NCBI GenBank assembly: GCA_946553025.1
Contig: CAMNRM010000054.1
Location: forward strand, 1-34,597
Reading direction: 5' to 3'
Source: an uncultured Clostridium sp.
GTDB taxonomy: Bacteria > Bacillota > Clostridia > Lachnospirales > Lachnospiraceae
DNA length: 34,597 nucleotides
This document shows, piece after piece, positions 11,159 through 34,597 of the stretch. Below the pieces are notes generated by a model. It made no database searches. It was given only the letters and a program-made list of their open reading frames with translations, and was not told the origin of the DNA. A program made the position numbers and the translations under genes. Positions within the stretch are counted from its first letter, which is position 1, and each line of letters opens with the position of its first letter.

Positions 11159-11199
11159 TCTGTACTTTTTGAACATTATTTATTTCAGGGTGTGGTATT

Positions 11200-12141: not shown

Positions 12142-12165
12142 GGCGGATTCTCCTGTTTATTATTA

Positions 12166-12210
12166 TATAAATTAAATTTATATTAACATAAAAACTATAA
12201 ATTTGATTTA
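12166..12210. promoter_or_regulatory. Two LysR-type operator dyads
   Basis: TATAAAT-TAA-ATTTATA (12166-12182) and TATAAAT-TTG-ATTTA (12196-12210) share a half-site and are 30 bp apart, about three helical turns. The first overlaps the likely lysR -10 (TATAAT on the minus strand, 12167-12162). The second overlaps the -35 of the rightward promoter. They fit recognition and activation sites for the LysR protein. Confidence 0.65.
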
Positions 12211-12231
12211 ATTATAAAACACGATTATACT
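12203..12231 (+). promoter_or_regulatory. Promoter of the dehydratase-symporter operon
   Basis: TTGATT (12203-12208), 17-bp spacer, TATACT (12226-12231). The -35 lies within the second LysR dyad, consistent with an activator-dependent promoter. Confidence 0.65.
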
Positions 12232-12332
12232 TATGTCAAGAAGAACAAACCAGTGCCAGAAAGGCAGCCAGGTGCAGTTGATTAGACAAAGCAAAAAGAA
12301 CAGGTTAAAAAGCCAAAGAAGGAGAAGAAGCG

Positions 12333-13841: not shown

Positions 13842-13917
13842 GGATAGGTACATAGAGATAAAAATACAGAAATAAAAACAGAACTGATAATAAGGATAAC
13901 AATATGGAGGAATGGTA

Positions 13918-15663: not shown

Positions 15664-15753
15664 ATGGAAGATTTAACAAGAATGAAGCTGAAAGCGAAAA
15701 ATTATTTCCAGAATCGGCCATCAAGGAGGTGGAATTATGAAATCGAACTTTGA
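15664..15753 (+). CDS. Possible 29-residue leader ORF overlapping hsdR
   Basis: ATG 15664 follows AGGAGGGCG and opens 29 codons (MEDLTRMKLKAKNYFQ...). The stop at 15751-15753 lies inside hsdR, 14 bases past its ATG. The hsdR ribosome site is within this frame, so translation of the leader could couple to or modulate HsdR synthesis. The ribosome site is good, but homology is unknown. Confidence 0.4.
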   Translation: MEDLTRMKLKAKNYFQNRPSRRWNYEIEL

Positions 15754-18700: not shown

Positions 18701-19003
18701 AGCTTGATTCGCCGGTATGCTATTGGCTCCACTCTTATTTCACATGAAGCCAGAATCCGGCAAGCGGTAGACAAGCTGAAAAAAGCGCACAAATTTTCCA
18801 AGCAGGAACTTAACTGGATTGCCAGAATGGAAAAGTACTTGATGGAAGAATCTGTTTTGAATATAGCCGTATTTGATGAGGACGGGCGTTTTAAGGCGCA
18901 GGGTGGCTTTGCGAAGATTAATAAAGTGTTTGGAGGTAAAGTAGAAAGCCTTATTTTGGAACTTAACGAGTACTTGTACGATGACGGAGGAAAAAGCGCA
19001 TGA
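15737..19003 (+). CDS. hsdR: Type I restriction enzyme, R (motor/nuclease) subunit
   Basis: A 1088-residue protein. Residues about 1-125 form a DUF4145-like helical domain (NGLFREGMITRDLKDILHALRINRNKATHENY). The PD-(D/E)XK nuclease domain follows, with D245, E259 and K261 (VDYALFVGMQLVATLEAK). The superfamily-2 translocase has GTGKT at 404-408, DEAH at 507-510, TATP-type motif III (ALTATPALQT) and motif VI MMGRATRRCPEI. The C-terminal region resembles the EcoEI-type HsdR C-terminus. With HsdM2S it translocates DNA and cleaves unmodified DNA at a distance. All catalytic residues are intact. AAGGAGGTGG provides the ribosome site. The next frame overlaps its stop codon (ATGA). Confidence 0.96.
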   Translation: MKSNFEFLNSHFPVLANFGELAEKYLYSDSNSCLMKLGMIGETIVNLCFTYDRILLPQDNTAANRINGLFREGMITRDLKDILHALRINRNKATHENYASVSDGKALIQMAYSLCEWFMQTYGDWNYQNRPFVMPAEITEPVSSDKKREQAKEEKLIKEAEKVATATPVMEKEIRKKQSGKAASQRIKSEAETRYLIDEQLRKVGWEADTERLRYSKGTRPAKGHNIAIAEWPTDSTVGNRGYVDYALFVGMQLVATLEAKAIHKDIPSVIDYQCKDYSKNIRSVDKIYQISTWDSYGVPFTFATNGRPYLEQYNTKSGIWFLDLRQPDNALKALRGWMSPEGLMELLNKDISARNQDLQEMSYDLLRDKDGLNLYEYQIRAIKAAEEAIINGRRNILLAMATGTGKTRTILGMIYRFLKTGRFHRILFLVDRTALGEQAFDVFQEVKLEDLMTLDDIYNIKGLDDKEIDRETRIQIATVQSMVKRIMYNDGDTMPAVSDYDLVIIDEAHRGYILDREMGEDEILYRDQMDYQSKYRSVVEYFDAVKIALTATPALQTTEIFGQPVFKYTYREAVIEGYLVDHDMPHRLLTKLNTEGIHYKKGDIIVRYDPVTGEITNSELLEDELDFDVDAFNRQVITEPFNQTVLAEIARDIDPESPDVQGKTLIFAVNDDHADLIVKILKEIYTEMGVDNDAIMKITGSVGGGNKKKVKDAIRRFKNERFPSIVVTVDLLTTGIDVPAITTLVFMRRVKSRILFEQMMGRATRRCPEIHKTHFEIYDPVGVYDSLEAVNTMKPVVVNPSATFEQLLEGLEVLEDERHVQNQIDQIVAKLQRKKQHMDAETMEQFISMAGKQDPTQFIADIQQRKPQDAKKRLLAHTELFKMLAQFKPDGRYSVVISDHEDKLLEHSRGYGKSRKPEDYLDAFADYIKINLNKIAALNIICTRPKELTREGLRSLRLTLDREGFTTQQLNTAVSQMTNEEIAADIISLIRRYAIGSTLISHEARIRQAVDKLKKAHKFSKQELNWIARMEKYLMEESVLNIAVFDEDGRFKAQGGFAKINKVFGGKVESLILELNEYLYDDGGKSA

Positions 19004-19104
19004 TATATAATCAATATCCATACAGCATTTACAATCCTATCTATGTGAATCAAGACTATTTGCGTCAGTTTGAAGCCCAGCAGCGGAACGGAGGACGTTT
19101 CTAA
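19000..19104 (+). CDS. 34-residue Tyr/Asn-rich microprotein inside the hsd operon
   Basis: ATG at 19000 overlaps the hsdR stop (ATGA). Its own stop TAA (19102-19104) overlaps the hsdM ATG (19104), so both junctions are stop-start overlaps. The 34 codons encode MIYNQYPYSIYNPIYVNQ followed by a polar tail. It is rich in Tyr, Asn and Pro and resembles no domain I know. GACGGAGG lies about 13 bases upstream, inside hsdR. The double overlap argues that it is translated. It could be an accessory or regulatory peptide of the restriction system, or simply a coupling device. Confidence 0.55.
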   Translation: MIYNQYPYSIYNPIYVNQDYLRQFEAQQRNGGRF

Positions 19105-20522
19105 TGACGACCCAAGAAATTGTATCTAAGCTCTGGAACCTTTGCAACGTCCTTCGGGACGACGGTATTACCTACCACCAATATGTAACAGAACTGACCT
19201 ATATCCTGTTCCTGAAAATGGCGAAAGAAACAGGCGTAGAGAGCCAGATACCAGAAGCCTATCGCTGGGACAGTTTAACCGTCAAGAGCGGCATCGAGTT
19301 GAAGAAATTTTATAAAGAACTGCTGAACCATCTGGGTGAGAACTGTACAGGCCGTGTGCGGGAAATCTATCAGGACGCAGCTACCAACATTGACGAACCG
19401 AAAAATCTTGAAAAGATCATCATCACCATTGATGGGCTGGATTGGTTTTCTGCCCGTGAAGAAGGTCTTGGCAACTTATATGAAGGCCTTTTGGAGAAGA
19501 ACGCCAATGAGAAAAAATCAGGCGCAGGGCAATATTTTACGCCCCGCGTGTTAATTGACGTGATGACCCGTCTGGTGAAGCCCCAACCAAAGGAGCGCTG
19601 CAATGACCCTGCCTGCGGTACATTTGGCTTTATGATCGCAGCTCATCGGTATGTTGCGGCCCAGACAGATGACTTTTTTGACCTGGATGCAGATACCGCC
19701 GCCTTTGAACGGATGGACGCTTTTACAGGTACGGAACTGGTACACGATACCCACCGTCTGGCGCTGATGAACGCCATGCTTCACAATATGGAGGGGGCCA
19801 TCACCCTGGGCGACACTCTGTCCAACCTGGGCAAGGGCATGAGAGGCTATGATGTGGTTCTCACCAATCCCCCATTTGGCACGAAAAAAGGCGGGGAACG
19901 CACCACTCGTGACGACTTTACCTATACCACCAGCAACAAGCAGCTGAATTTTTTGCAGCACATTTATCGCAGTCTGAAAGCAGATGGAAAGGCCCGCGCT
20001 GCTGTGGTGCTGCCGGATAACGTCCTTTTTGCGGATGGTGATGGTGAGAAAATCCGGATTGACCTGATGGACAAGTGCAACCTGCATACGGTTCTGCGTT
20101 TGCCTACCGGCATTTTCTACGCCCAAGGGGTCAAAACTAATGTGCTGTTTTTCACTCGCGGCAAGGCAGACAAGGGCAACACGCAGGAGGTCTGGTTTTA
20201 CGATCTGCGCACCAATATGCCCTCTTTTGGCAAGACCAGTCCACTGAAAATGGAGCATTTCGCGGGCTTTGAGGCGGCATTTGAGGCAGTGGACCGCCAT
20301 GACGTGCAAGATGAGCGGTGGAGCGTGTTCACCCGTGAGCAAATCGCTCAGAAGGGCAACAGCCTGGACTTGGGGCTGATTCGGGCTGATTCCGTAGTTG
20401 ATTATGACGATCTGCCAGACCCAATCGAGAGCGGCGAGGAAGCAATCGCCCAGCTTGAAGAAGCAGTGGACCTCCTGCAAAGCGTGGTGAACGAGCTGAA
20501 AGCCTTGTCGGAGGTGGAGTGA
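19104..20522 (+). CDS. hsdM: Type I DNA methyltransferase, M subunit
   Basis: A 472-residue N6-adenine methyltransferase subunit. The N-terminal helical HsdM_N domain (about 5-125) is followed by the Rossmann-like catalytic domain. The GAGQYFTPRVLIDVM signature precedes the SAM-binding motif DPACGTFGF (168-176; the third position after T is usually G, here F), and the catalytic motif IV NPPF is at 255-258. As M2S it methylates the host target and forms the restriction complex with HsdR. Its ATG overlaps the microprotein stop, and GGAGGACG is upstream. It ends in a TGATG overlap with hsdS, giving tight coupling of M and S synthesis. Confidence 0.96.
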   Translation: MTTQEIVSKLWNLCNVLRDDGITYHQYVTELTYILFLKMAKETGVESQIPEAYRWDSLTVKSGIELKKFYKELLNHLGENCTGRVREIYQDAATNIDEPKNLEKIIITIDGLDWFSAREEGLGNLYEGLLEKNANEKKSGAGQYFTPRVLIDVMTRLVKPQPKERCNDPACGTFGFMIAAHRYVAAQTDDFFDLDADTAAFERMDAFTGTELVHDTHRLALMNAMLHNMEGAITLGDTLSNLGKGMRGYDVVLTNPPFGTKKGGERTTRDDFTYTTSNKQLNFLQHIYRSLKADGKARAAVVLPDNVLFADGDGEKIRIDLMDKCNLHTVLRLPTGIFYAQGVKTNVLFFTRGKADKGNTQEVWFYDLRTNMPSFGKTSPLKMEHFAGFEAAFEAVDRHDVQDERWSVFTREQIAQKGNSLDLGLIRADSVVDYDDLPDPIESGEEAIAQLEEAVDLLQSVVNELKALSEVE

Positions 20523-21841
20523 TGGCGAAGAAAAAAGAGGCTTCTGCCAGCCCATTTGTGCCAGTGGAGGAACAGCCGTATCCGATTCCGGAAAATTGGT
20601 GCTGGACATATTTATCTTGTGTTGCTCAGTGGGGATCAGGTGGTACACCATCTAGGAAAATATTAGCATACTATGACGGAAACATTCCCTGGATTAAAAC
20701 TGGTGAATTAAATGATGAACCGATTTATAAATCAGAAGAACACATTTCAAGTGAAGCATTAGCAAATTCAAGTGCCAAATTATTTCCAATCCATACAGTT
20801 ATAATTGCAATGTATGGGGCTACAATTGGAAAAGTTGGGATTTTGGAGATTAAAGCTGCAACTAATCAGGCTTGTGCGTGTGCTGTTTCATCTGTTGCAA
20901 TAGACTATAAATACCTTTTTTATTATGCTAAATCGCAAAAGGATGCGTTCATTAAAAAAGGAAAGGGCGGTGCGCAACCAAATATTTCGCAAGAGATAAT
21001 AAAGACTCATGAAATCCCGCTTCCCCCTCTCGCAGAACAACACCGCATTGTTTCCCGCATAGAAAGCCTGTTTGCCAAGCTGGATGAGGCGAAGGAAAAG
21101 GCCCAGGCGGTGCTGGACGGTTTTGAACTGCGGAAGTCTGCCATTCTTCATAAGGCGTTTACGGGAGAATTACTTGGATTATCTGGAAGCAAAACAATAC
21201 CACTGGAAGCAATCGTGGGAACAATTAGAATAGGGCCATTTGGTAGTGTCCTTCATAAAGAGGACTACATTGCAGGTGGGATACCTGTAATAAATCCGAA
21301 ACATATTACAAATCAACAAATTGCTCCAGAAGGAAAAGTCACAATTTCAGAAGAGAAAGCATTAGAACTGGCAGCATATAGGTTAAAAACTGGTGATATT
21401 ATTATGGGGCGCAGAGGTGAAATGGGACGATCTGCGCCCATAACAGAAAAGGAAAATGGTTGGTTATGTGGAACAGGAAGTCTGATTATCAGACTTCAAG
21501 AGGGATACATTGCAGCATTTTACTCTCAAATTATTGCCAGCCATTCTTCGGTGCAATATCTCGAAGAAAATTGCGTTGGTTCAACGATGAAAAATTTAAA
21601 CGAAAAGGTTATAAAGAGTTTGCCTGTCCCTAGTTATACGAAAGAGCAACAGGAAGAAATTGTTGCTATTTTTAATAGTCTTTTAGAAAAAGAACAGCAA
21701 GCCAAATCTGCTGCCGAAGCTGTCCTTACCCAGATCGATAGCATGAAAAAAGCGATTTTAGTTCGTGCGTTCCGTGGGGAACTGGGAAGCAATGACCCTT
21801 CGGAGGAATGGGCAGGAGAATTGCTGAAAGTGATGCTATAA
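20522..21841 (+). CDS. hsdS: Type I specificity subunit
   Basis: A 439-residue protein with two target-recognition domains (about 15-165 and 220-375). They are separated by a central conserved coiled coil (IPLPPLAEQHRIVSRIESLFAKLDEAKEKA...LRKSAILHKAFTGEL). The homologous C-terminal repeat reads QQEEIVAIFNSLLEKEQ...SMKKAILVRAFRGEL. Each domain recognises one half of a bipartite site. I chose the ATG at 20522 (TGATG overlap, strong GGAGGTGGAG upstream); a GTG at 20519 is possible. The 3' end and following 75 bases are duplicated 1020 bp downstream, which shows past recombination at this locus. Only one hsdS gene is intact, and no invertase gene is seen. Confidence 0.95.
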   Translation: MAKKKEASASPFVPVEEQPYPIPENWCWTYLSCVAQWGSGGTPSRKILAYYDGNIPWIKTGELNDEPIYKSEEHISSEALANSSAKLFPIHTVIIAMYGATIGKVGILEIKAATNQACACAVSSVAIDYKYLFYYAKSQKDAFIKKGKGGAQPNISQEIIKTHEIPLPPLAEQHRIVSRIESLFAKLDEAKEKAQAVLDGFELRKSAILHKAFTGELLGLSGSKTIPLEAIVGTIRIGPFGSVLHKEDYIAGGIPVINPKHITNQQIAPEGKVTISEEKALELAAYRLKTGDIIMGRRGEMGRSAPITEKENGWLCGTGSLIIRLQEGYIAAFYSQIIASHSSVQYLEENCVGSTMKNLNEKVIKSLPVPSYTKEQQEEIVAIFNSLLEKEQQAKSAAEAVLTQIDSMKKAILVRAFRGELGSNDPSEEWAGELLKVML

Positions 21842-24239: not shown

Positions 24240-25097
24240 CTAAAGATTCAGCAAAACCAATGCCGCCAGGATCAGCACTAAAGCCAGTTTCTTCTGCGCA
24301 TTGAGTTTTTCACAGAAAACCAACAGGCCGACGATACTGGTCAGCATAATTGTACCTGTGCTGTATACAGGATAGGCGATAACCGCCGGTACATATCCAA
24401 GGGACAGCAATAAAAATCTGGCAGAATAATAATTTGGAATACCAATCAGCAGGCCGCTGCCGATGTCTGCGAAACTTATTTTCTGTTTGTTAAGCAATGC
24501 CATAACAAGGGCTGTTAATAATGCGGCAAAAAATGTATAAAAAAGATATTGATTTTTTAATCCCTCTGCACCGATTTTATCGTAAATATTTGCCATCGTG
24601 TCTGTAAAACCGCTGCCCAGAAGCAGGAAAAGCAGCCAGAGTGTTTTGCGATCCCCGCGTACATCGCCGTTTTTCCTGCTTACTTTTTTCATATTCATGA
24701 GAAGAATTGCCGTGACTGCAAGGATAATTCCTGCAAATGCTGTCCTTCCCATGGGTTCGTGAAAAAGTAAGATAGCCAGGAGAACAGGAATCAAAACCGA
24801 GCCTAATTTCATCGCTGCACTGGAGAGAATAACCCCATTGCAGCGAATATTTTGCTGCAGCAGGACAAAACAAAGCAGATAGAAAACCCCGCTTATCACG
24901 CCCAGAGCAACAGCGGTTCCTATTCCCTGTTCATGGGTAAAAAGACGGGTATCTCCGATATAAAACAGAGAGAGCACCAGACACAGCGCATAGTTGGCCG
25001 TGAACATCACCATCGTATTGCGGACGTACTTTTCCGTGAGCCGCATACCGATAGAAACCATTGCGCTGCTGGCGATTGCTAAGAGTAAGTAAACCAT
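24240..25097 (-). CDS. EamA/DMT-family transporter
   Basis: A 285-residue membrane protein with about ten hydrophobic helices, arranged as two EamA repeats (about 1-135 and 150-285) around a basic linker (KKVSRKNGDVRGDRK). A short-helix start (MVYLLLAIASSAMVSIGMRL) and the repeat-end pattern FHEPMGRTAFAGIILAVTAILLM are typical of drug/metabolite transporters. It starts three bases after the aldo/keto reductase stop, so the two are cotranscribed. Substrate is unknown. It may move a metabolite of the neighbouring reductase and GRE pathway in or out (inference). Confidence 0.85.
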   Translation of the reverse strand: MVYLLLAIASSAMVSIGMRLTEKYVRNTMVMFTANYALCLVLSLFYIGDTRLFTHEQGIGTAVALGVISGVFYLLCFVLLQQNIRCNGVILSSAAMKLGSVLIPVLLAILLFHEPMGRTAFAGIILAVTAILLMNMKKVSRKNGDVRGDRKTLWLLFLLLGSGFTDTMANIYDKIGAEGLKNQYLFYTFFAALLTALVMALLNKQKISFADIGSGLLIGIPNYYSARFLLLSLGYVPAVIAYPVYSTGTIMLTSIVGLLVFCEKLNAQKKLALVLILAALVLLNL

Positions 25098-25100
25098 TTC

Positions 25101-26126
25101 TTACAGCGGTTTCCCCGCCAAAATCTCCTGATAATCTTTATAATTGGTTTCCAGCAGCGTCGGCGTGTCCAGCCCATACGGACATTTCGACTTGCACTGG
25201 CCGCAGTGGAGGCAGTCGGCGATTTTTCCCATCTTTTCCTGTACCTCGGGGGTGAGCTGGGCGGCGGAGGGGGAGCGGCGGATAAGCAGGGACATCCGGG
25301 CGCAGTTATTGATTTCAATGCCTACCGGGCAGGGCATACAGTAGCCGCAGCCGCGGCAGAAGTTCCCGGCAAGTTCCTTTTTATCTTTAGCAATAATCGC
25401 TTCCAGTTCTTCGGTCATTTCCGGCGGATTATCGATATAGCTTAAAAATTCATCCAGCTCCTTTTCCCTCTGCACGCCCCAGATTGGAAGGACATGGTCA
25501 AACTGAGCCTGGAAGGCGTAGGCGGCGGCAGAGTTGGTGATCAGCCCGCCGGATAAAGCCTTCATGGAGATAAAGCCCATATTTTTTTCTTTGCACATCT
25601 GCACGATTTCAAAGTCCGCTTCCGCAGCCAGATAGCAGAAGGGGAATTGCAAAGTTTCATATAAGCCGGATGCGATAGCTTCCTTTGCCACAGCCAGCCG
25701 ATGGTTGGTAATGCCGATGTGGCGGATTTTTCCCTGTGCCTTTGCTTCTAATGCCGCCTCGTAAAGCCCTGAGCCGTCCCCCGGTTTCGGGCAGAAATCC
25801 GGGTTGTGGAACTGGTAGATATCGATATAGTCCGTTCGCAGGGTTTCCAGGCTTTCTTCCAGTTCCTTCCAGAAAACATCGGCGGTTGTCGCTGCCGTTT
25901 TTGTGGCAATATAAATCTTTTCCCGGACATCGTGGAAAGCTTCCCCTAATTTTTTCTCGCTGTCGGTGTAGGCGTGGGCGGTATCATAAAAGTCGATGCC
26001 GCTTTTGTAGGCCTTGTGCAGCAGATAAACGGCGTCCTCTGTGGAAATCCGCTGGATGGGCAGGGCACCGAAGCCGTTTTTATTGACCGTAATATTCGTG
26101 CTTCCTAAAGTAACGGTTTGTTTCAT
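25101..26126 (-). CDS. Aldo/keto reductase with C-terminal 4Fe-4S domain
   Basis: A 341-residue protein. The AKR barrel (about 1-260) keeps the catalytic tetrad: Asp and Tyr in FYDTAHAYTDSEKKLGE, Lys in IYIATKTAA, His in YQFHNPD. Residues about 262-325 add a ferredoxin-like domain with two Cys clusters (CRGCGYCMPCPVGI and CLHCGQCKSKCPYGL). Fe-S AKRs of this kind are common in anaerobes, and the electron donor may be ferredoxin rather than only NAD(P)H. AGGAGG is well placed upstream of the ATG. It is divergent from the OYE-GRE operon across a 277-bp region with tandem dyads, so it may share regulation with it. Confidence 0.93.
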   Translation of the reverse strand: MKQTVTLGSTNITVNKNGFGALPIQRISTEDAVYLLHKAYKSGIDFYDTAHAYTDSEKKLGEAFHDVREKIYIATKTAATTADVFWKELEESLETLRTDYIDIYQFHNPDFCPKPGDGSGLYEAALEAKAQGKIRHIGITNHRLAVAKEAIASGLYETLQFPFCYLAAEADFEIVQMCKEKNMGFISMKALSGGLITNSAAAYAFQAQFDHVLPIWGVQREKELDEFLSYIDNPPEMTEELEAIIAKDKKELAGNFCRGCGYCMPCPVGIEINNCARMSLLIRRSPSAAQLTPEVQEKMGKIADCLHCGQCKSKCPYGLDTPTLLETNYKDYQEILAGKPL

Positions 26127-26318: not shown

Positions 26319-26347
26319 TTGACAATTTTCCCCTGGTGATATTTAAT
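26319..26347 (+). promoter_or_regulatory. Promoter of the GRE operon
   Basis: TTGACA (26319-26324), 17-bp spacer, TTTAAT (26342-26347). A sigma-A type promoter; no -24/-12 sigma-54 motif is present upstream. Confidence 0.55.
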
Positions 26348-26412
26348 ATAAGCATCAGCTATATTTTTAAAAAATTGTGCTATATGCATAAAGGAGAAGG
26401 AGCGTGATTGGA

Positions 26413-28356
26413 ATGAACAAATTATTTCCTGTATTATTCAGTCCCTGCAATATCGGCAATGTGGAGATTAAGAACAGGATTTGTAAAGCGCCGCAGACCT
26501 CTGGGCTGAGCAACCTCGACGGTTCGGTTTCTCCCCGACTGGTGCGCTATTATGAGGATCTGGCCAATGGTGAGGTCGGCATGATTATCGTAGAATACGC
26601 CTATGTTGACCGGCTCTACAGTAAATCTGCCTCGAACCAGCTTGCTATCTGCGACGACGAATATATCGTAGGACTGGGATGGCTGGCGGATACCATTAAG
26701 AATCTTGGTTCTGTGCCCTGTATCCAGATTGAGCACTGCGGACGTCAGCGCTTCTTAGGCCCGCCAATGAAGTCTGCATCGGCAAATCCCTGGCCTTTGA
26801 TGTATGAGCGCTACGGTCAGGCTGCGATTCCCGAGGAACTGACCATTGAAGAAATTCATGAGATTGTAGAAGCCTTTGGAAAGGCTGCATGGCGTGCAAA
26901 GACCGCCGGATTTGAGGTTGTGGAAATCCACGGCGCACACGGCTATCTGATTACCAACTTCCTTTCCAAGTTTACCAACCAGAGAACCGACTGGTACGGC
27001 GGAAGCCGCGAGAACCGGTTCCGCTTCTTAGAGCAGGTATTCACCCGCTGTAAAGAATATGTGGGAGAGGACTTCCCGATTATCGTCCGCTTAAGCGGAA
27101 CGGATTACGAGCCGGACGGCATGAGCATTGAAGATACGATTTACTATGCAAAGCGTCTGGAAGAGATGGGCTGTGCGGCGATCGACGTCAGCGGCGGCGA
27201 TCACCATATGATGATTCACCAGGTAACGCCGATGCAGCTTTCCAAGGGACACAATGTATGGGCAGCGGAAGCCGTGAAGAAAGAGGTTTCTATTCCTGTA
27301 TTTGCTACCGGTTCCATCACCCTTCCCGAGTATGCCGAGGAGATTTTGGAGAGCGGCAAGGGCGACTTTATCAGCATGGGACGTCCGCTTTTGGCTGACC
27401 CGTTCTGGGCTAAGAAGGCAAGAGAAGGCCGCCCGGAGGATATCTCACCATGTATCCGCTGTAATGAAGGATGTCTGGATCGGGGCAACCATCTGGGCAA
27501 GTCCTTAAATTGTACGATGAATCCAACCCTTGGTTTTGAAGATGCATTAGCAATACATAAAGCCGAAAAACCCGGAAAAGTTGCTGTGGTCGGCGGCGGG
27601 CCAGCCGGAATGCAGGCCGCAGTTGTGGCAGCAAAACGGGGCCATGATGTAACCCTCTATGAGAAGAGAAAGCTTGGCGGTTATCTCCACGAGGCTTCCA
27701 TGCCTGAATTTAAGGCGGATATCCGCAATGCCCTGCGCTATCTCACAACCCAGGTAAAGAAGCAGAACATTAAGGTTGTAGAAAAAGAAGCAACCGCAGA
27801 AGAACTGAAGGCCGCAGGCTACGACGCCGTGATTGTGGCAACGGGAACGACACCGATTAAGTTAAATGTTCCGGGAAGCGACCAGAGCTTTGTCAAGGCA
27901 GCGGTTGATGTATTAAATCCCGAGGTTAAGGCACCCAAGGGTAAGATAGTTGTTATCGGCGGCGGTCTGATTGGTACGGAAACAGCGGTACAGCTTGGCC
28001 TTGACCCGGAGAATAAGGTAACGATTGTGGAGATGCTGCCGCAGATTATGAAGGACTGCAGCGCTTCCGATACCATGGTTTATCCCGATATGATGAAAGA
28101 GCACAATGTCCGCGTGATGACCAACAGCCGGGTTGTGGAGATTACCGATAAAGAAGTCGTTGTAGAGCAGAAGGGCAGAACAAAGAAGATTGCTGCCGAC
28201 TGCGTACTGATGGCGGTGGGGATGCGGTCAGAGAAGGGACTGTATCAGCAGCTTAAGGAAGACGGAGTTCGTGTTTTCCAGGTAGGCGATGCCGTAAAGA
28301 CCGGTAAGATTTACGATGCAATCCACACGGGGTACAAGGCTGGATTAAACGTATAA
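26413..28356 (+). CDS. Old-yellow-enzyme family Fe-S flavoprotein (2-enoate/2,4-dienoyl reductase type)
   Basis: About 647 residues. The FMN barrel (1-345) has typical OYE landmarks (IKNRICKAPQTSG, IHGAHGYLITNFLSKFTNQRTDWYGGSRENRFRF, the SMGRPLLADP end). A 4Fe-4S motif C-x2-C-x3-C-x12-C follows (CIRCNEGC...NC). A C-terminal FAD/NAD(P)H domain has GGGPAGMQAA and GGGLIGTETA dinucleotide folds. This is the plan of 2-enoate reductase, FadH, BaiCD/BaiH and related alkene reductases, which reduce activated C=C bonds. The protein is full length apart from a short C-terminus. GTG 26404 is an alternative start; both lie after AAGGAGAAGGAG. It is the first gene of the GRE operon, so it probably performs a reductive step on the pathway substrate or product. 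Confidence 0.92.
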   Translation: MNKLFPVLFSPCNIGNVEIKNRICKAPQTSGLSNLDGSVSPRLVRYYEDLANGEVGMIIVEYAYVDRLYSKSASNQLAICDDEYIVGLGWLADTIKNLGSVPCIQIEHCGRQRFLGPPMKSASANPWPLMYERYGQAAIPEELTIEEIHEIVEAFGKAAWRAKTAGFEVVEIHGAHGYLITNFLSKFTNQRTDWYGGSRENRFRFLEQVFTRCKEYVGEDFPIIVRLSGTDYEPDGMSIEDTIYYAKRLEEMGCAAIDVSGGDHHMMIHQVTPMQLSKGHNVWAAEAVKKEVSIPVFATGSITLPEYAEEILESGKGDFISMGRPLLADPFWAKKAREGRPEDISPCIRCNEGCLDRGNHLGKSLNCTMNPTLGFEDALAIHKAEKPGKVAVVGGGPAGMQAAVVAAKRGHDVTLYEKRKLGGYLHEASMPEFKADIRNALRYLTTQVKKQNIKVVEKEATAEELKAAGYDAVIVATGTTPIKLNVPGSDQSFVKAAVDVLNPEVKAPKGKIVVIGGGLIGTETAVQLGLDPENKVTIVEMLPQIMKDCSASDTMVYPDMMKEHNVRVMTNSRVVEITDKEVVVEQKGRTKKIAADCVLMAVGMRSEKGLYQQLKEDGVRVFQVGDAVKTGKIYDAIHTGYKAGLNV

Positions 28357-28363
28357 AAAATTT

Positions 28364-28401
28364 CCCGGTTCATTCAGGCAGGTTTGCCGGAAGGAACCGG
28401 G
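28364..28401 (+). promoter_or_regulatory. Intercistronic hairpin after the first GRE-operon gene
   Basis: CCCGGTTC (28364-28371) pairs perfectly with GAACCGGG (28394-28401). There is no T-tract after it, so it is more likely an mRNA processing or stabilising hairpin than a terminator. It may set a different level for the first gene. Confidence 0.5.
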
Positions 28402-28444
28402 TGCGTAAAAATAAACAAGATAATGTATGAAGGAGGAAACACAA

Positions 28445-29503
28445 ATGTCAAAGGCTGTAGAAGATTGGAACACAAAGAAATTTGGTCGCGTGATTACCGA
28501 TGATGAACTGCACATCCGCACACACCAGGCACATCCTTATCTGTACTTTAATCCCTGCCCGGATATCGATCCTGCACAGATCGATGAGATCTTAAAGGGC
28601 GGTATTGACGTACATCTCCACGGTGCTCCTTTAGCCGGTCGTCTTTTCGGACGTCCGAAGGTTTTGGATACCTGTATCCGCGCAAGTGAAGCAGGGATGA
28701 AAGCATTAGTATTTAAAGATCACTATACCGCAACCAATCCCATGTGCCATGTAATTCAGGACGTTTTAGGAAGAATGGCCAAAGAACGTGCGGCAGCGGG
28801 AGAGGAATTTGTTCCGGTTCAGGTATTTGGCGGCGTAACGCTGAACAGCAATGTCGGCGGCATGAATGTAGCAGCTGTTCGCGCTGCGCTTGACCTGGGC
28901 CGTTGTAAGGAAGTTTGGCTTCCGTCCATGGACGCAGCACACCAGAGAGAAGCTATGGGCTTAGACGGCGGTATCCGTGTCAGCGATTTAAAGGGTACGC
29001 TGACCAAGGAAATGATTGACGTTCTGGAAATGCTGGCAGATTACAATAACAACAGCACCGGCGAGCGTGTCGTTCTCTCCGGCTGCCATGTATCCAATGA
29101 AGAAAAGATTGATATCCTGGACTACATCAACAAGAAGGGTATGGATGTCAAGGTACTTATGGATCATGTAACCCAGGAAATGACGATTATTACACCTTCC
29201 GAAGCACAGGAAATGATCGACAAGGGCGGCTATCTGGAATTTGCTGAATGTTCATGCGTTCCGTGGCCGGGCATGAAGGACTGGGTAGTGGCTTATGATT
29301 ACTCCTTCAACCTGATTAAGCAGCTCTTAAAGGACAACGGCCCGGATCACCTGGTACTGATCACCGATGCAGGACAGCCAGGAAATGAACCGATTGACGG
29401 CTGGAAGAACTTTATCAAGATGCTTCTGTCCGAGGGCGTAGCCGAGAAGGATATCAACTACATGTTAAAGGATGTTCCGGCAATGCTGCTTGGAAAGATT
29501 TAA
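28445..29503 (+). CDS. DUF6282 amidohydrolase-like protein
   Basis: 352 residues from ATG 28445, which follows GAAGGAGGAAAC; the in-frame ATG at 28427 overlaps that ribosome site. The sequence has the ordered metal ligands of an amidohydrolase-type barrel: H-x-H in GGIDVHLHGAP, a Lys in LVFKDHY that could be carbamylated, His in LSGCHVS, His in LMDHVTQ, and Asp in LITDAGQ. I assign it to DUF6282, a family of metal-dependent-hydrolase relatives with no established reaction. In this operon it could hydrolyse a ring amide, lactone or ester, or catalyse a hydration. It contains no signal peptide. Confidence 0.8.
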   Translation: MSKAVEDWNTKKFGRVITDDELHIRTHQAHPYLYFNPCPDIDPAQIDEILKGGIDVHLHGAPLAGRLFGRPKVLDTCIRASEAGMKALVFKDHYTATNPMCHVIQDVLGRMAKERAAAGEEFVPVQVFGGVTLNSNVGGMNVAAVRAALDLGRCKEVWLPSMDAAHQREAMGLDGGIRVSDLKGTLTKEMIDVLEMLADYNNNSTGERVVLSGCHVSNEEKIDILDYINKKGMDVKVLMDHVTQEMTIITPSEAQEMIDKGGYLEFAECSCVPWPGMKDWVVAYDYSFNLIKQLLKDNGPDHLVLITDAGQPGNEPIDGWKNFIKMLLSEGVAEKDINYMLKDVPAMLLGKI

Positions 29504-29573
29504 GAGAAAGCATTGAACGGAAGAAAGCAAAGAAAGAAATAAAAAATTCAGCAGGACGGAAGGGGGCAGCCGT

Positions 29574-30476
29574 ATGAAAGGGCTTGTATCGGAGATTACC
29601 AGTTTTTCCACCCATGACGGGCCGGGGATTCGGACGACGGTATTTTTAAAAGGCTGCCCCCTGCGCTGCAAATGGTGCTCCAACCCGGAAACATTTACCT
29701 TGGAGAAGCGATTGTTTTATATCGCGAATAAATGTCAGGACTGCGGCCGCTGTGAGGCGGTCTGTCCTGCCGGGGCCATTGGAAAAAAAGAAAAGGGATT
29801 TCGGCGGATTGACCGGAAGAAATGCCATATGTGCCTGGAATGTGTGGAAACCTGTATGGCAAAGGCTTATCAGGTTTCCGGCAGGGAATATACGGCAGAA
29901 GAGCTTTTTGGGCGGCTTTGCAGGGAAAAGCCCTTTTACGGAAAGAACGGCGGACTGACCATGAGCGGAGGGGAAGCCTTAAGCCAGTGGGAGTTTACCG
30001 CAGAGGTATTTTCCATGTGTAAGAACGACGGGATTTCCACGGTGTTAGACACCACAGGCTACGGAAGCGACGAGGCGCTTGCGCGGATTTTGCCGCTTAC
30101 CGATTTATGTCTTTTGGATATCAAGCACATGAACCCCGAGCTTCACCGGCAATGGACCGGGGTGTCCAATGAACGGATACTGGCAAACGCAGAAAAAATT
30201 GCCGGACAGGTAGAAACCCGGATTTCCCTTCCCTTAGTTGCCGAGGTTAATGATTCGGCGAAAAATCTTCATGAAACCGCAGAATTTGCAGTTTCCTGTC
30301 ATATTCAATGGATTGATCTTAATCCCCTTCATATGCTGGGCGCATCAAAATACCATTTTTTGGGAAAAAATTCCCCCTATGGAAAATTCCGCAAGCTGGA
30401 AAAAAGCGAGGTAGAAGAAGCCTGTAAGATTCTTCGATCGCACGGGCTTTCGGTCAGCGTAGGGCGGATGATGTAA
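29574..30476 (+). CDS. Glycyl-radical enzyme activase (radical SAM)
   Basis: A 300-residue PflA-type activating enzyme. The radical-SAM cluster is C-x3-C-x2-C in GCPLRCKWCSNPE. It is followed by two ferredoxin-like 4Fe-4S motifs (CQDCGRCEAVCPAGAI and CHMCLECVETCMAKAY), the layout of activases for GRE dehydratases, lyases and decarboxylases rather than of pyruvate formate-lyase itself. The SAM-binding GGE box reads MSGGEALSQ (commonly GGEP). It abstracts hydrogen from the conserved Gly of the GRE, here presumably Gly798 of the enzyme two genes downstream. The ribosome site is GGAAGGGGG upstream of the ATG. Confidence 0.95.
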   Translation: MKGLVSEITSFSTHDGPGIRTTVFLKGCPLRCKWCSNPETFTLEKRLFYIANKCQDCGRCEAVCPAGAIGKKEKGFRRIDRKKCHMCLECVETCMAKAYQVSGREYTAEELFGRLCREKPFYGKNGGLTMSGGEALSQWEFTAEVFSMCKNDGISTVLDTTGYGSDEALARILPLTDLCLLDIKHMNPELHRQWTGVSNERILANAEKIAGQVETRISLPLVAEVNDSAKNLHETAEFAVSCHIQWIDLNPLHMLGASKYHFLGKNSPYGKFRKLEKSEVEEACKILRSHGLSVSVGRMM

Positions 30477-30490
30477 CGCGATAAATCGGC

Positions 30491-30515
30491 AATAAAGATC
30501 CGTCTGGATTTTATT
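30491..30515 (+). promoter_or_regulatory. Hairpin with U-rich end between activase and PreA-like gene
   Basis: AATAAAGATCC pairs with GGATTTTATT around a GTCT loop (10 bp, one bulged G). The 3' arm is T-rich. It could be a weak attenuator that sets the ratio between the activase and the abundant downstream enzymes. Confidence 0.4.
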
Positions 30516-30548
30516 GATAAAAAATATTGTAAAAAGGAGAGATGACGA

Positions 30549-31832
30549 ATGGCAAATTTAAAGACTACATTTTTAGGCGTAGAAGTAAAGAACCCCGTGG
30601 GCGTAGCTTCCTGTGACTTTGGCGGTCATGAGCATCTAGCAAAAAGAGTGGTTGAGCAGGGTATTGGATGGCTTACGGCAAAGACTTGCCATAAGATTGA
30701 CGGCCCGCACCGCTGGCCAAGACCTTATTTCTATTCCTTAAAGAAATTCGGCCCGGAATTAAGAGATTCCTGGGTAAGCAGCCAGATGTTTAACAACATG
30801 CCTTATGACGAGTGGTTAGAGAATGAAGGTCCGAAGATCTTAAAGCTCTGCCGCGATAACGGCGTGCTTTTCATCGCCAGCGTGTGCGGAATCGGAACCG
30901 ATCCGGCGACCTGGACCTGTCTGTGTAAAGATATGGAAGATATGGGCTGTGATATGATCGAACTGGATACCGGCGGCCCTCATGCAACCTTTGGCGCGAT
31001 TGAGTCCCAGGCTGACGTAGGCGCTCCTCTGGCAATGGACCCGGAGAAGGCTTATCTGGTAGCAAAAGCCTGTGTTGATTCGGTTAAAGTTCCGATTATC
31101 TTTAAGTGTACTCCGCAGTGCGTAAACCAGGCAGCGATTGCCATGGCAGTAGAAAAGGCAGGCGCTCATGCGATTACCGCAAATAACGCCTTCTACGGAA
31201 CCTGGATTGACCATGAAACCGGCTCCTTCTACGGCGGACCTTACGCGGTAGGCGGTTCCATCGGACGTCCGTGGCAGTTATTCTCCCTGGCAAAATTCCT
31301 GGAAACCACAGCAACCTTAAAGGGATTCCCGACCATCGGCGTGGGCGGTATCTTAACCTGGGACGACTGTGTTCGTTACATGATGGCTGGTGCAACCTTA
31401 ACCGGTCTTTGCTCTTCGGTTTACTCCCGCGGCGTAGGTATCTTAGCGGATTGTATCGAAGGAATGAACAGCTTTATGGATCGCAAGGGCTACAAGTCGG
31501 TAGAAGATTTCCGCGGCTGTGTAGTGGATCAGTTCTCCTATGTACGTGACTATCCAAGAGAAAAATGGATGGCAAAACAGTCCCCAATCCTGCCGAAGTT
31601 TGAGATGAAGAACTGTACGGGATGCGGCGTCTGCGAAACCGTTTGTCCTTACGGCGCAATTACACTGAAGGATAAGAAACCGCAGTTAGACGATACCGTA
31701 TGTATGGGATGCGGCTGGTGTATGGGACACTGCCCGGCAAAAGAGCAGGTAATTACCATGGTTCGCCGTGATAACGGACACATTGTATGGACCGGACGCG
31801 GAGAGCATGAAGCATGGTGCAAGGAAGACTAA
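30549..31832 (+). CDS. PreA/dihydroorotate-dehydrogenase-like Fe-S flavoprotein
   Basis: A 427-residue protein. The FMN barrel (about 1-330) resembles the C-terminal part of dihydropyrimidine dehydrogenase (PreA) and class 1B dihydroorotate dehydrogenases: FLGVEVKNPVGVASC, the TAKTCHK segment, VPIIFKCTPQ, and the phosphate site (TIGVGGILTWDDCVRYMMAGA). Two 4Fe-4S clusters follow (CTGCGVCETVCPYGAI, CMGCGWCMGHCPAKEQ). Where PreA/DPD has a catalytic-Cys loop after the N-x-SCPH box, this protein reads ELDTGGPHATFGAIESQ with no Cys. It therefore may not reduce pyrimidines. A C=C or C=N reduction, or the reverse oxidation, on another substrate is likely. No PreT-like partner is adjacent; the OYE-type enzyme or ferredoxin may supply electrons. 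Confidence 0.88.
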   Translation: MANLKTTFLGVEVKNPVGVASCDFGGHEHLAKRVVEQGIGWLTAKTCHKIDGPHRWPRPYFYSLKKFGPELRDSWVSSQMFNNMPYDEWLENEGPKILKLCRDNGVLFIASVCGIGTDPATWTCLCKDMEDMGCDMIELDTGGPHATFGAIESQADVGAPLAMDPEKAYLVAKACVDSVKVPIIFKCTPQCVNQAAIAMAVEKAGAHAITANNAFYGTWIDHETGSFYGGPYAVGGSIGRPWQLFSLAKFLETTATLKGFPTIGVGGILTWDDCVRYMMAGATLTGLCSSVYSRGVGILADCIEGMNSFMDRKGYKSVEDFRGCVVDQFSYVRDYPREKWMAKQSPILPKFEMKNCTGCGVCETVCPYGAITLKDKKPQLDDTVCMGCGWCMGHCPAKEQVITMVRRDNGHIVWTGRGEHEAWCKED

Positions 31833-31903
31833 GAAGCAGCTGGTTTTATTGTGCAGTAAAATGATAAAGTGTAGAATGTGTTGAAGAAAGGAAAGCGTGA
31901 AAT

Positions 31904-34375
31904 ATGGCAGTTAAAGTCAATAATATTATACAGAGAGAGATTATCGGATCGCCTTCTACTGCCAGAGTATCCAAACGGTATAAAGAACTTCTCAGCAAGG
32001 AGGCATACATTGATTCCGAGCGGTGTGAGCTGTACACCGAGTATATGAAGCAGAACTGGAATGAACCTGTTTATCTGCGGGCAGGCGGTGCCTTAAATTA
32101 TGTTCTGTCGAATCTGACACCGGTGATCTGGGAGGATGAACTTCTGGTAGGAAGCCAGTCCAGGTATTTCCTGGGGACACAGGTCTATCCTGAGTATGAA
32201 ACCTGGATGCTGGAAGGGTTCAGGGATATTAAGCGCGAAGAAGAGGCTTATATGGAAGGAACCCTTCAGAAAAAGGAAGGGGAACGTCTGGGGATTTACC
32301 GGATTTACCCGGAGGACAGCAAGAAGATTCTGGAAATGGCAAACTTCTGGGACGGAAAGAACTGGAGGGCACAGGCTGAACGCTATCTGAAGGAAACGAT
32401 GGAGGACTACGATCAAATCGAGAAGATGCAGCAGCAGCTGGTTTTCCTACGGTTTATGTTCGATGTTCCCGAGGGCCGTGTGATTGTCGATTACCAGAAG
32501 GTTATTGATATGGGTATCGAGGGGCTTATTGCCGTTGCCAAAAAGAAGATGGAAGCTCTGGGTGAACTGCAGACGAAGGATGATTTTGATAAGTACAATT
32601 TCTATAAAGGGACGATTCTGGCACTGGAAGGCGTGATCAATTTTGCTGCACATTATGCGGATGAGGCAAAGCGTCAGGCGGATCAGTGCAGGGATGAAAA
32701 GAGGAAGAACGAACTTCTGGAGATTGAGCGGATCTGCCGCAAGGTTCCGGCAAAGCCTGCGGATACCTTCCGTGAGGCGATGCAGTCCTTCTGGTTTGCA
32801 CATCTTTGCATCTTTATCGAACTGAACGGGCGCGGGATGTCGCCGGGACGGTTTGACCAGTATATGTATCGTCCGTACCTGCAGGAAAAGGCAGCAGGAA
32901 AGATTACGGATGAGGAAGTGCTTGAGTATCTGGAACTGATGCGCATTAAGTGCACGGAGCTGACCAGGGCACATGCCACATTTACGGAATCCTACCTTGG
33001 CGGAAGTATTTATCAAAATTTAACCCTTGGCGGTATCGACCGTTACGGACGCCCGGCAGAAAATGAACTTTCCCGTCTGGTATTAAAGGCAGGAATCAAT
33101 GTGCGTACCTGGCAGCCGACGATCTCTGTCCGCTGGCGTGAGGATATGTCCACCGAATTTAAGAATGATGTTGTGGAATGTATCAAGGCAGGTTCGGGCT
33201 ATCCGGCAATCTTTGGTGACGAACTTCCGGTGAAGCGGTTTATGGAAGTAACCGGGGCAAGCTTAGAGGATGCCAGGGACTGGTCGCCCTGCGGCTGCGT
33301 GGATATGCAGATTGGCGGAAAGCGTATGCCGATGTATGCGGTAAACCATACGAACAACTTAAAGATTCTGGAACTGGTCATGAACAACGGTGTAAATCCG
33401 GTAACGGGCGATAAGCTGATTGACACGGAGATTGATTTTGTTCATGCAAGCTATGACCAGATCGTTAAGGAGTACAATCGTCTGATGCATGTGATCTTAA
33501 ACTGGGAGGAGAAGTGCTGGAACCTGATTATGCTGGTTCACAATGACCTGGGCCTTGTTCATCCGTTTATGAGCGCATTATTGGATGACTGTCTGGAGAA
33601 GGGTACAGACGCCTACAGCGGCGGATGCCGGTACAATGATCCGACCTACGTTATTGCCTGCGGTATGGTCAATGTGGCAAACAGCCTGGCGGCTATCCGC
33701 AAGAATGTATTTGAGGATAAGCGCTTCACCCTGCCTGAACTCTTAGAGGCAATGAAGGCGGATTTTGTGGGCTATGATGCTGTCCGCAAGGCTCTTTTAG
33801 ATGCGCCTAAGTACGGCAATGACGATGACTACGTGGATCAGATTCTGGTAGAACTCTACGATCAGTGGGCCGATGCGGCAACCCAGGTGGATAACTGGCT
33901 TGGCGGAAGCTGGCAGCCTTCGACCCTGTCCGTAACGACGCAGGTACTGCTTGGCAAAGCCTGCGGGGCCAGCCCGGACGGACGCTGCTCCAAAGATTTC
34001 CTTTCCGACGGAGCACTGTCCGCATTCCCGGGAACCGATGTCAACGGGCCGATCAGCCTGATTCGTTCGGCGACAAAGATTCATGCAGAGAATCTGCAGT
34101 CTACCTTATTTAATATGAAGTTTAACCCCACGGCAATCGAGGGGCAGGCGGGAACGGATAAGTTTATTACGCTGAATGATACCTACTTTAACTTAGGCGG
34201 TTATCAGATTCAGTACAATGTCGTTGACCGGAATATGCTTATAGATGCCAGAAAGCACCCGGAGAATTATTCCGATTTAATGGTGCGCGTGGCTGGATTT
34301 ACGGCAAGATTTATCGATTTAGGGCCGGATGTACAGCGCCAGGTTATTGAGCGAACGGAATATGAGAATGTCTGA
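31904..34375 (+). CDS. Glycyl radical enzyme of unassigned specificity (GCVD type)
   Basis: An 823-residue PFL-like barrel. The active-site thiyl Cys465 lies in WSPCGCVDMQIGG, and the radical Gly798 in MVRVAGFTARFIDLGPDVQ near the C-terminus. Length and C-terminus fit the GRE dehydratase/lyase/decarboxylase groups, not pyruvate formate-lyase, which has two adjacent catalytic Cys. Characterised dehydratases and C-N or C-S lyases carry Gly-Cys-Val-Glu; here the acid is Asp467, one methylene shorter. No small subunit (as in 4-hydroxyphenylacetate decarboxylase) and no microcompartment genes are present. GAAAGGAAAGCG is the ribosome site. It is the last and largest gene of the operon and presumably performs the central bond cleavage on the substrate handled by the two flavoproteins and the hydrolase. 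The reaction is unknown. Confidence 0.93.
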   Translation: MAVKVNNIIQREIIGSPSTARVSKRYKELLSKEAYIDSERCELYTEYMKQNWNEPVYLRAGGALNYVLSNLTPVIWEDELLVGSQSRYFLGTQVYPEYETWMLEGFRDIKREEEAYMEGTLQKKEGERLGIYRIYPEDSKKILEMANFWDGKNWRAQAERYLKETMEDYDQIEKMQQQLVFLRFMFDVPEGRVIVDYQKVIDMGIEGLIAVAKKKMEALGELQTKDDFDKYNFYKGTILALEGVINFAAHYADEAKRQADQCRDEKRKNELLEIERICRKVPAKPADTFREAMQSFWFAHLCIFIELNGRGMSPGRFDQYMYRPYLQEKAAGKITDEEVLEYLELMRIKCTELTRAHATFTESYLGGSIYQNLTLGGIDRYGRPAENELSRLVLKAGINVRTWQPTISVRWREDMSTEFKNDVVECIKAGSGYPAIFGDELPVKRFMEVTGASLEDARDWSPCGCVDMQIGGKRMPMYAVNHTNNLKILELVMNNGVNPVTGDKLIDTEIDFVHASYDQIVKEYNRLMHVILNWEEKCWNLIMLVHNDLGLVHPFMSALLDDCLEKGTDAYSGGCRYNDPTYVIACGMVNVANSLAAIRKNVFEDKRFTLPELLEAMKADFVGYDAVRKALLDAPKYGNDDDYVDQILVELYDQWADAATQVDNWLGGSWQPSTLSVTTQVLLGKACGASPDGRCSKDFLSDGALSAFPGTDVNGPISLIRSATKIHAENLQSTLFNMKFNPTAIEGQAGTDKFITLNDTYFNLGGYQIQYNVVDRNMLIDARKHPENYSDLMVRVAGFTARFIDLGPDVQRQVIERTEYENV

Positions 34376-34450
34376 TGGATTGAAAAGACAGACTTATGCC
34401 GGTTTGCCGTGCATGGATAGATAGAGGACGCAATACTGACAAAAAAAGAA

Positions 34451-34481
34451 GGGCAGTGCTAGGGCTGCCCTTTTTGCTTTA
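34451..34481 (+). terminator. GRE operon terminator
   Basis: GGGCAG (34451-34456) pairs with CTGCCC (34465-34470), followed by TTTTTGCTTTATT. The remaining 34482-34597 shows no gene. Confidence 0.8.
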
Positions 34482-34597
34482 TTGGATGGGTGGTTATGGT
34501 AATCAAGTAATGGTAAGAAAGTTATTGTTCACGGGGGTGCTACGGTGGGGGCATATTCCGTCGTCACCGCGCTCTCGCTCCGCAAAAGAACACAGCG

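What the first reader, a model, noticed from the sequence alone, without database searches (positions are those of the whole stretch)
26404..34481. Unassigned glycyl-radical operon combining two Fe-S flavoprotein reductases and a DUF6282 hydrolase
Seen: OYE/enoate-reductase-type flavoprotein, DUF6282, GRE activase, PreA-like flavoprotein and GRE in one direction, with one promoter and a terminator after the GRE. Known: GRE operons for choline, propanediol, glycerol, isethionate, hydroxyproline, dihydroxypropanesulfonate and arylacetates have other partners. Inference: an anaerobic pathway for an unsaturated, likely cyclic molecule that is reduced, hydrolysed or hydrated, and then cleaved by radical chemistry. 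A plant, host or drug-like ring compound is possible. I know of no described pathway with this gene set.
Basis: partly seen in the sequence, partly recalled or inferred. Interest (0 to 1): 0.85.

Follow-up and report, generated by a model that had tools for sequence, protein, structure and literature searches.

The report
Unassigned glycyl-radical enzyme gene cluster
A bacterium, not named here, carries three related sets of genes built around an uncharacterised oxygen-sensitive radical enzyme, a ring-reductase-like flavoprotein and a metal hydrolase; related sets occur in bacteria of four phyla and probably break down an organic acid that has not been identified.

Summary
The five genes are real and lie in one direction. 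Four (DUF6282 hydrolase, activase, PreA-like flavoprotein, GRE) form a conserved module: the same genome holds two more copies, and relatives with 67-76% identical GREs occur in Actinomycetota, Bacillota, Coatesbacteria and Bacteroidota. The OYE was found only at the window locus. The GRE is a separate clade (100/100), outside the sampled IAD/HPAD decarboxylases and eliminases. Asp replaces the Glu after the catalytic Cys in 13 of 13 members (Glu in 19 of 19 others); an Arg of the decarboxylases is kept and a second Arg is unique. The PreA-like protein resembles ferredoxin-dependent ring reductases but lacks the uracil-site Cys and Asn. DUF6282 is predicted to have an amidohydrolase fold. Clusters in five other genomes add an AOR-type aldehyde oxidoreductase; the window's host shows none. 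Best reading: radical C-C cleavage, probably decarboxylation, of a carboxylate, with ferredoxin-driven reduction and hydrolytic opening of an unsaturated, probably cyclic molecule. Substrate unknown.

The parts
31904..34375 (+). Glycyl radical enzyme, 823 aa; thiyl loop CGCVDM (C463, C465, D467), Gly loop RVAGF (G798), R192, R310
   Evidence: Pfam PFL-like 587 bits and Gly_radical 94 bits; own clade 100/100; residue comparison
29574..30476 (+). Radical SAM GRE-activating enzyme with ferredoxin-type Fe-S motifs
   Evidence: NCBIfam TIGR02494 300.9 bits, cut-off 174; Fer4 domains
30549..31832 (+). PreA/DHODH-like domain plus one ferredoxin-type (4Fe-4S dicluster) domain; predicted ferredoxin-dependent reductase
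   Evidence: DHO_dh and Fer4 domains; PreA model 162 bits, cut-off 335; pig DPD alignment
28445..29503 (+). DUF6282 metallohydrolase (listed ORF starts at 28427, likely start 28445; residue numbers in this report count from 28427)
26404..28356 (+). OYE/BaiCD-like Fe-S flavoenzyme; accessory, found only at this copy among the loci examined
   Evidence: NCBIfam BaiCD 501 bits, cut-off 825; not found at the related loci; best own-genome paralogues 34-38% identical
28364..28401 (+). RNA hairpin between OYE and DUF6282 without a T-run (possible processing or stability element)
   Evidence: -23.8 kcal/mol, z -3.2
26319..26365 (+). Candidate promoter region upstream of the OYE (TTGACA at 26319); not demonstrated
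   Evidence: hit count not above shuffles
34446..34475 (+). Terminator-like hairpin after the GRE
   Evidence: hit count only slightly above shuffles

Best explanation
This is one of three copies, in one genome, of a conserved and apparently horizontally spread catabolic module for an organic acid. The core is GRE, activase, PreA-like flavoprotein and DUF6282 hydrolase. Proposed working: an anion is imported (an oxalate/formate/lactate-type MFS transporter sits beside sister copies). The activated GRE makes a thiyl radical at C465 and cleaves a C-C bond next to a carboxylate held by R192, most likely decarboxylation in the manner of the arylacetate decarboxylases, with R310 holding a second anionic or polar group. 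The PreA-like protein uses reduced ferredoxin to reduce a conjugated C=C, probably in a ring. DUF6282, predicted to be a binuclear metal hydrolase, opens the reduced ring at an amide, lactone or 1,3-dione. Peripheral enzymes differ by host: an OYE in the window copy, an AorABC-type aldehyde oxidoreductase in Pelotomaculum-like, Coatesbacteria and Bacteroidota versions, an XDH-type enzyme in one Clostridia MAG. Shown by calls: the gene set, its co-conservation, the separate GRE clade, the residues, the predicted hydrolase fold. Inferred: reaction types, order, carboxylate binding, metal content. Unknown: the substrate.
Against: D467 replaces Glu1 of IAD and HPAD; E502Q abolishes skatole formation by IAD (PMC9248008, passages), so the chemistry may differ. 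The equivalents of IAD H514 and HPAD E637 are A479 (Ser in one copy) and I584. The tree puts the clade outside the sampled decarboxylases, its root is unknown, and the tree builder warned of long branches among the other GREs. The best solved-structure match of the GRE is glycerol dehydratase (441 bits), above the hydroxyphenylacetate decarboxylase chain 7e7l (372 bits). Genome G066 has the GRE but no DUF6282 or PreA match, and G062 has no DUF6282 match; both are MAGs. No transporter follows within 222 nt of the window GRE or about 330 nt of the GRE of L029, where the sister loci that have it downstream start it within about 150 nt. The window's host shows no AOR, so the aldehyde step is not general. 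Nothing shows that the substrate is cyclic.
Confidence: 0.45

Rival explanations
1. The GRE is an eliminase (dehydratase or lyase) of a new type acting on a hydroxylated or aminated acid; PreA-like and DUF6282 process the resulting enone or cyclic product.
For: Best PDB match is glycerol dehydratase; TIGR01774, whose name includes glycerol dehydratase, scores 556 bits (cut-off 678); the clade is separated from the sampled decarboxylases by a 98/98 branch.
Against: GCxE is GCxD; glycerol dehydratase H164, H281 and D447 (numbers read off the 1r8w alignment, roles recalled) align with R192, R310 and A479; all eliminase equivalog models are far below cut-off; R192 is a decarboxylase feature.
Confidence: 0.25
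2. An arylacetate-type decarboxylation pathway in which the AOR oxidises an arylacetaldehyde to the acid and the GRE releases a methyl-arene, as for p-cresol, toluene or skatole; PreA-like and DUF6282 act elsewhere.
For: NCBIfam best model is indoleacetate decarboxylase, 667 bits; R192 shared with IAD and HPAD; AorA, AorB and AorC in the GRE cluster of 5 genomes.
Against: No AOR match in the window's genome; hydrolase and reductase are more tightly tied to the GRE than the AOR is; scores below the IAD and HPAD cut-offs; Glu1 is Asp.
Confidence: 0.12
3. The GRE is a PFL-like C-C lyase using two cysteines (C463 and C465) on a ring-opened oxo acid made by PreA-like and DUF6282.
For: C463 and C465 in 13 of 13 members; a reductase plus hydrolase would deliver an open-chain oxo acid (inference).
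Against: PFL has adjacent cysteines, C418 and C419 (PMC12338860, start of abstract in listing); a CGC motif also occurs in L066, a GRE of the CutC side of the tree; pyr_form_ly_1 scores only 138 bits, cut-off 994.
Confidence: 0.1
4. The first reader's five-gene pathway, with the OYE as an obligatory step.
For: Co-directional, 70-nt spacing.
Against: No OYE match at the paralogous operons or the other loci tested; hairpin between OYE and DUF6282.
Confidence: 0.08

Closest known systems
Indoleacetate decarboxylase (IAD) and 4-hydroxyphenylacetate decarboxylase (HPAD)
   Same: GRE with a ferredoxin-type activase; Arg226-equivalent; Tyr370 at the place of the IAD Phe401 cap; an MFS transporter in IAD clusters (PMC6181972, passages)
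   Different: 27-36% identity in the alignments made; Asp for Glu1; no H514 or E637 equivalent; extra R310; partnered with PreA-like and DUF6282
PydAc, ferredoxin-dependent dihydropyrimidine dehydrogenase, with its amidohydrolase PydB
   Same: FMN-type domain plus ferredoxin domain, no NAD(P)H module in the core set, paired with a metallohydrolase (PMC7332683, passages)
   Different: one ferredoxin domain where C. chromiireducens PydAc has two; Asn668 and residue 671 of pig DPD align with Asp140 and Gly143, invariant in 7 members; PreA model score 162 against cut-off 335
Amidohydrolase superfamily: isoaspartyl dipeptidase, phosphotriesterase-like lactonase, dihydroorotase
   Different: 12-16% sequence identity in the listed rows; substrate unknown; no paper in the library holds the term DUF6282
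AorABC tungsten aldehyde oxidoreductase of Aromatoleum
   Same: three-gene set in 5 GRE clusters; AorB of L033 matches 1aor at 377 and 8c0z_A at 276 bits; AorC of L037 matches 8c0z_E at 134 bits, though NADH oxidase 6pfz scores higher, 176
   Different: linked to the GRE module; AorA is named from its place and Fe-S domains only; no AOR match in the window's genome

Membership tests
Glycyl radical enzyme superfamily | PFL-like and Gly_radical domains, Gly loop, catalytic Cys, activase in the same operon | tested here: met
IAD / HPAD | Equivalog score over curated cut-off | tested here: not met
   667 of 1100 (IAD) and 475 of 1150 (HPAD)
IAD / HPAD | Glu1 at Cys+2 | tested here: not met
   Asp in 13 of 13; Glu in 10 of 10 IAD and HPAD-clade rows
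IAD / HPAD | Arg226-equivalent in the active site | tested here: met
   R192, 13 of 13; its position in the cavity is inferred
IAD / HPAD | His514 (IAD) or Glu637 (HPAD) | tested here: not met
   A479 (Ser in one copy) and I584
AAD / PAD arylacetate decarboxylases | Clade membership and active-site residues | tested here: inconclusive
   PDB chain 7e7l (hydroxyphenylacetic acid decarboxylase) scores 372 bits, below glycerol dehydratase; no confirmed AAD or PAD row was in the tree
GRE eliminases (CutC, HypD, HpsG/HpfG, glycerol/diol dehydratase) | GCxE motif and equivalog scores | tested here: not met
   GCVD; all below cut-off
X-succinate synthases | Family score and accessory subunits | tested here: inconclusive
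   A chain deposited as benzylsuccinate synthase alpha (8iof) scores 370 bits, MasD 287, TutD 264; no such row in the tree; accessory subunits not searched for
PreA / PydA dihydropyrimidine dehydrogenase | DHODH-type (FMN) domain plus Fdx domain | tested here: met
PreA / PydA dihydropyrimidine dehydrogenase | Equivalog score and uracil-site Cys671 and Asn668 (roles recalled) | tested here: not met
   162 of 335; Gly143 and Asp140, invariant in 7
Amidohydrolase superfamily | Barrel fold with HxH, Lys, His, His, Asp | tested here: met
   (predicted model; metal binding not tested)
BaiCD / bilirubin reductase (for the OYE) | Equivalog score | tested here: not met
   501 of 825; 467 of 750

The most novel reading that the evidence does not exclude
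A new radical-initiated anaerobic ring-degradation pathway: a new class of GRE decarboxylase or C-C lyase coupled to a ferredoxin-driven ring reductase and a ring-opening metallohydrolase, spread by horizontal transfer over at least four phyla and tripled in the window's genome, opening a class of plant-, diet- or host-derived cyclic acids to fermentation.
Probability: 0.35. Interest if true: 0.82.

Novelty: new variant of a known kind. Interest (0 to 1): 0.62.

Why it matters
Many abundant gut GREs have no known function (PMC11574389, passages). This clade has a fixed partner set, a distinctive active site and copies in several lineages, so its reaction can be tested with four purified proteins. 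If the reading holds, it links GRE chemistry to reductive ring opening, a combination that did not appear in the listings of the library searches done here.

Tried and rejected
Considered and set aside: (1) uracil- or orotate-type substrates: the uracil-site Cys and one Asn are replaced in the PreA-like protein. (2) The AOR-type protein as a BamB-like aromatic-ring reductase: it is closer to true AORs (1aor 377 bits) than to BamB (4z3w 185 bits). (3) A link to the 2026 'Magic' benzene cluster found also in a Pelotomaculum: the 12 of 33 passages shown of PMC13101534 and the 3 of PMC13416013 mention no comparable gene set; the rest was not read. (4) A riboswitch or other Rfam RNA in the window: none at gathering threshold. 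(5) Carriage on viral contigs: no match to six GRE peptides. (6) A diol-dehydratase reading: D447 aligns with A479.

Rows and limits: the GRE tree left out L003, L064, L089, L091 and L093. Of the 8 HPAD-clade rows 3 were scanned and are over the HPAD cut-off (L088, L095, L096); the other 5 are named by their place in the tree. Both IAD rows are over the IAD cut-off. Of the 8 'other' GREs, L069, L070 and L071 were not scanned. The genome-contig scan used only two peptide patterns, so 10 loci is a lower bound. The order-wide GRE search found 1 of 392 genomes, the window's own, but scored only 2 candidates per genome there and missed the window's own copy; absence is weak evidence. Other prevalence figures: 2 of 113 in the class of the Pelotomaculum MAG, one of them that MAG; 3 of 4 in the phylum of a Coatesbacteria MAG, two of them starting genomes. 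In 398 phylum genomes 27 hold a DUF6282 at E <= 1e-20; among the loci compared (the second hit of G688 was not fetched) only G000 and G522 hold the window type, and G522 appears to be the same assembly as G064, judged by contig number, contig length and identity. AOR-type genes are common in anaerobes: 11 of 11 other genomes and 5 of 14 controls have one, so presence alone says little. Genome comparisons mix MAGs of unknown completeness. The first DUF6282 model (3 rows) was poor, pLDDT 51, and was not used. The fold rows come from a second look at Foldseek's best 1000, not a full search. The GRE was never modelled, so active-site positions rest on alignments. Substrate guesses that I thought about (furoate, imidazoleacetate, nicotinate-type acids) have no evidence and are not claimed.

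Full report
OBSERVATION. Domain assignments are clear: OYE/BaiCD-like Fe-S flavoenzyme, GRE activase, PreA/DHODH-like flavoprotein with a C-terminal ferredoxin-type domain, GRE, and DUF6282, a Pfam family without a function. The terminator-like hairpin is there (34446-34475). A promoter is plausible but unproven, since promoter-like hits are no more frequent than in shuffles. The probable DUF6282 start is 28445.

THE MODULE IS FOUR GENES, IN THREE COPIES. The window is the whole contig C54 of a 4.87 Mb, 126-contig genome. Contigs C45 and C100 of the same genome carry DUF6282-activase-PreA-GRE in the same order, each with a divergent PucR-type regulator and an MFS transporter of the oxalate/formate/lactate type. 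GRE identities to the window copy are 79% and 80%, and 93% between the two. The OYE is present only in the window copy; the best OYE paralogues in the genome are 34-38% identical and lie elsewhere. In 10 other same-genus genomes no window-type DUF6282 was seen: the five DUF6282 proteins found there are 26-30% identical to the query set. The module therefore looks accessory in the genus.

CO-CONSERVATION. A scan of the genome-contig collection with two GRE peptide patterns gave 10 loci at 67-76% identity, from Eggerthellaceae (Aveggerthella, Rubneribacter), Clostridia, Thermoanaerobacterales, Pelotomaculum, Coatesbacteria, an unnamed bacterium of the same phylum as the last and a Bacteroidetes MAG. 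In the 9 genomes concerned (GRE 9 of 9 by construction), PreA-like is found in 8 and window-type DUF6282 in 7; the gap between cognate and other GREs is wide (1412 bits and above against 585 and below). Two further genomes came from class and phylum searches. One tblastn table over all loci shows: GRE, DUF6282, activase and PreA-like on one contig in 6 other genomes besides the three own copies; AorA, AorB and AorC within the same cluster in 5 genomes (G065, G067, G069, G267, G364) and AorC beside DUF6282 in a sixth (G068); an XDH-type operon beside the GRE in G066, which has no DUF6282 or PreA match; the MFS gene beside 5 of the 7 loci of the window's subclade (in L030 and L031 only its first 55-62 residues before the contig ends), but not within 222 nt after the window GRE or about 330 nt after that of L029; the OYE in the window only. 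In a Thermoanaerobacterales MAG the PreA-activase pair lies beside genes that read as molybdenum-cofactor biosynthesis (by eye from protein starts). Distances between the four proteins are correlated over 10 loci; the sample includes three paralogues, and shared ancestry alone can give such a correlation.

THE GRE IS A SEPARATE CLADE. The best NCBIfam model is indoleacetate decarboxylase, 667 bits, against a cut-off of 1100; the other GRE models are also below their cut-offs. In a maximum-likelihood tree of 32 GREs the 13 members form a clade with 100/100 support; a 98/98 branch sets IAD, HPAD and the IAD-like L065 apart from it and from the remaining GREs, which themselves form a 100/100 group. 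The root is unknown, and the builder warned of long branches. AAD, PAD and X-succinate synthases were not in the tree. Within the clade the window, its paralogues, the Eggerthellaceae loci and L029 separate from the other members (100/99).

ACTIVE SITE. The thiyl loop is CGCVDM with Asp in 13 of 13 members, where 23 of 23 other rows in one alignment and 19 of 19 in the checked subset have Glu. In IAD this Glu is needed: E502Q abolishes skatole formation (PMC9248008, passages). R192 aligns with IAD Arg226, whose variants make no skatole (same passages), and is present in all 13 members, the 2 IAD rows, the 8 HPAD-clade rows and L065 but in none of the 8 other GREs. R310 occurs only in this clade; it aligns with H281 of glycerol dehydratase and with Leu (IAD) or Ser (HPAD). 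IAD H514 and HPAD E637 have no counterpart. I read this as a carboxylate site shared with the decarboxylases plus a second polar or anionic contact; that is inference from alignment, not structure.

PREA-LIKE PROTEIN. It has a DHODH-type domain and a ferredoxin domain and no NAD(P)H partner in the core set. In clostridia such proteins can use reduced ferredoxin: PydAc reduces uracil that way and sits in gene clusters with the dihydropyrimidinase PydB (PMC7332683, passages), and UacX of PF01180 plays a similar part in the uric acid pathway, likely ferredoxin-driven (PMC12507026, passages). Pig DPD positions 668 and 671 are Asp140 and Gly143 here, invariant in seven members, so the substrate is unlikely to be uracil.

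HOW IT PROBABLY WORKS. Import of an organic acid; radical C-C cleavage next to a carboxylate by the GRE; ferredoxin-driven reduction of a conjugated bond by the PreA-like protein; hydrolytic opening by DUF6282; host-specific peripheral enzymes (OYE, AOR, XDH) feed or tidy the pathway. The AOR is not essential, because the window's genome (99.75% complete) has no AFOR_N match, while 11 of 11 other genomes tested do. The order of GRE against reductase and hydrolase is not known.

NOVELTY. No paper in the held library contains the term DUF6282. Searches combining glycyl radical terms with DHODH and cyclohydrolase, AOR, Pelotomaculum, gene-neighbourhood, arylacetate decarboxylase, dihydropyrimidine dehydrogenase and PreA terms listed nothing that describes this set. 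These are ranked listings, some cut (for example 40 of 555 papers and 25 of 61), and subscription papers are mostly not held. The characterised GREs named in a figure legend of PMC11528403 (passages) include none of this description. I rate it a new variant of a known kind: a new GRE clade with a new, conserved partner set.

Noticed in passing
window 24240-26126 (-): An aldo/keto reductase with a C-terminal 4Fe-4S domain followed by an EamA-type transporter, divergent from the OYE and sharing its 277-bp upstream region; possibly co-regulated.
   Followed up: partly
window 9227-15138: PrpR_N/sigma-54 activator, LysR regulator, galactarate/altronate-dehydratase-like enzyme (266 bits, cut-off 731) and a probable cation:carboxylate symporter (named by eye): looks like a second organic-acid locus.
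   Followed up: partly
window 15737-21841: Apparent type I restriction-modification operon (1088, 472 and 440 aa), named by eye from the sequence.
   Followed up: no
L065 (G069:C414): A second GRE in the Bacteroidetes MAG, 36% identical to the window GRE, 800 bits on the IAD model (cut-off 1100), with an activase beside it: another unassigned decarboxylase-like GRE.
   Followed up: partly
L082 8363-15045: GRE of this clade with a PucR regulator and an XDH-type operon, in a MAG without DUF6282 or PreA matches; an exception to the module.
   Followed up: partly
L080 1014-9957: PreA-activase pair next to a block that reads (by eye) as molybdenum-cofactor biosynthesis genes in a Thermoanaerobacterales MAG.
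   Followed up: no
L023 8615-9505: A further DUF6282 gene in the window's genome beside dehydrogenase- and CoA-transferase-like genes (by eye); no GRE was seen among the ORFs listed for that 19-kb stretch. DUF6282 is found in 27 of 398 phylum genomes.
   Followed up: no
window 34376-34597, L021 end, L022: The window contig and C45 both end shortly after their GRE, as expected if the repeated operons broke the assembly.
   Followed up: no
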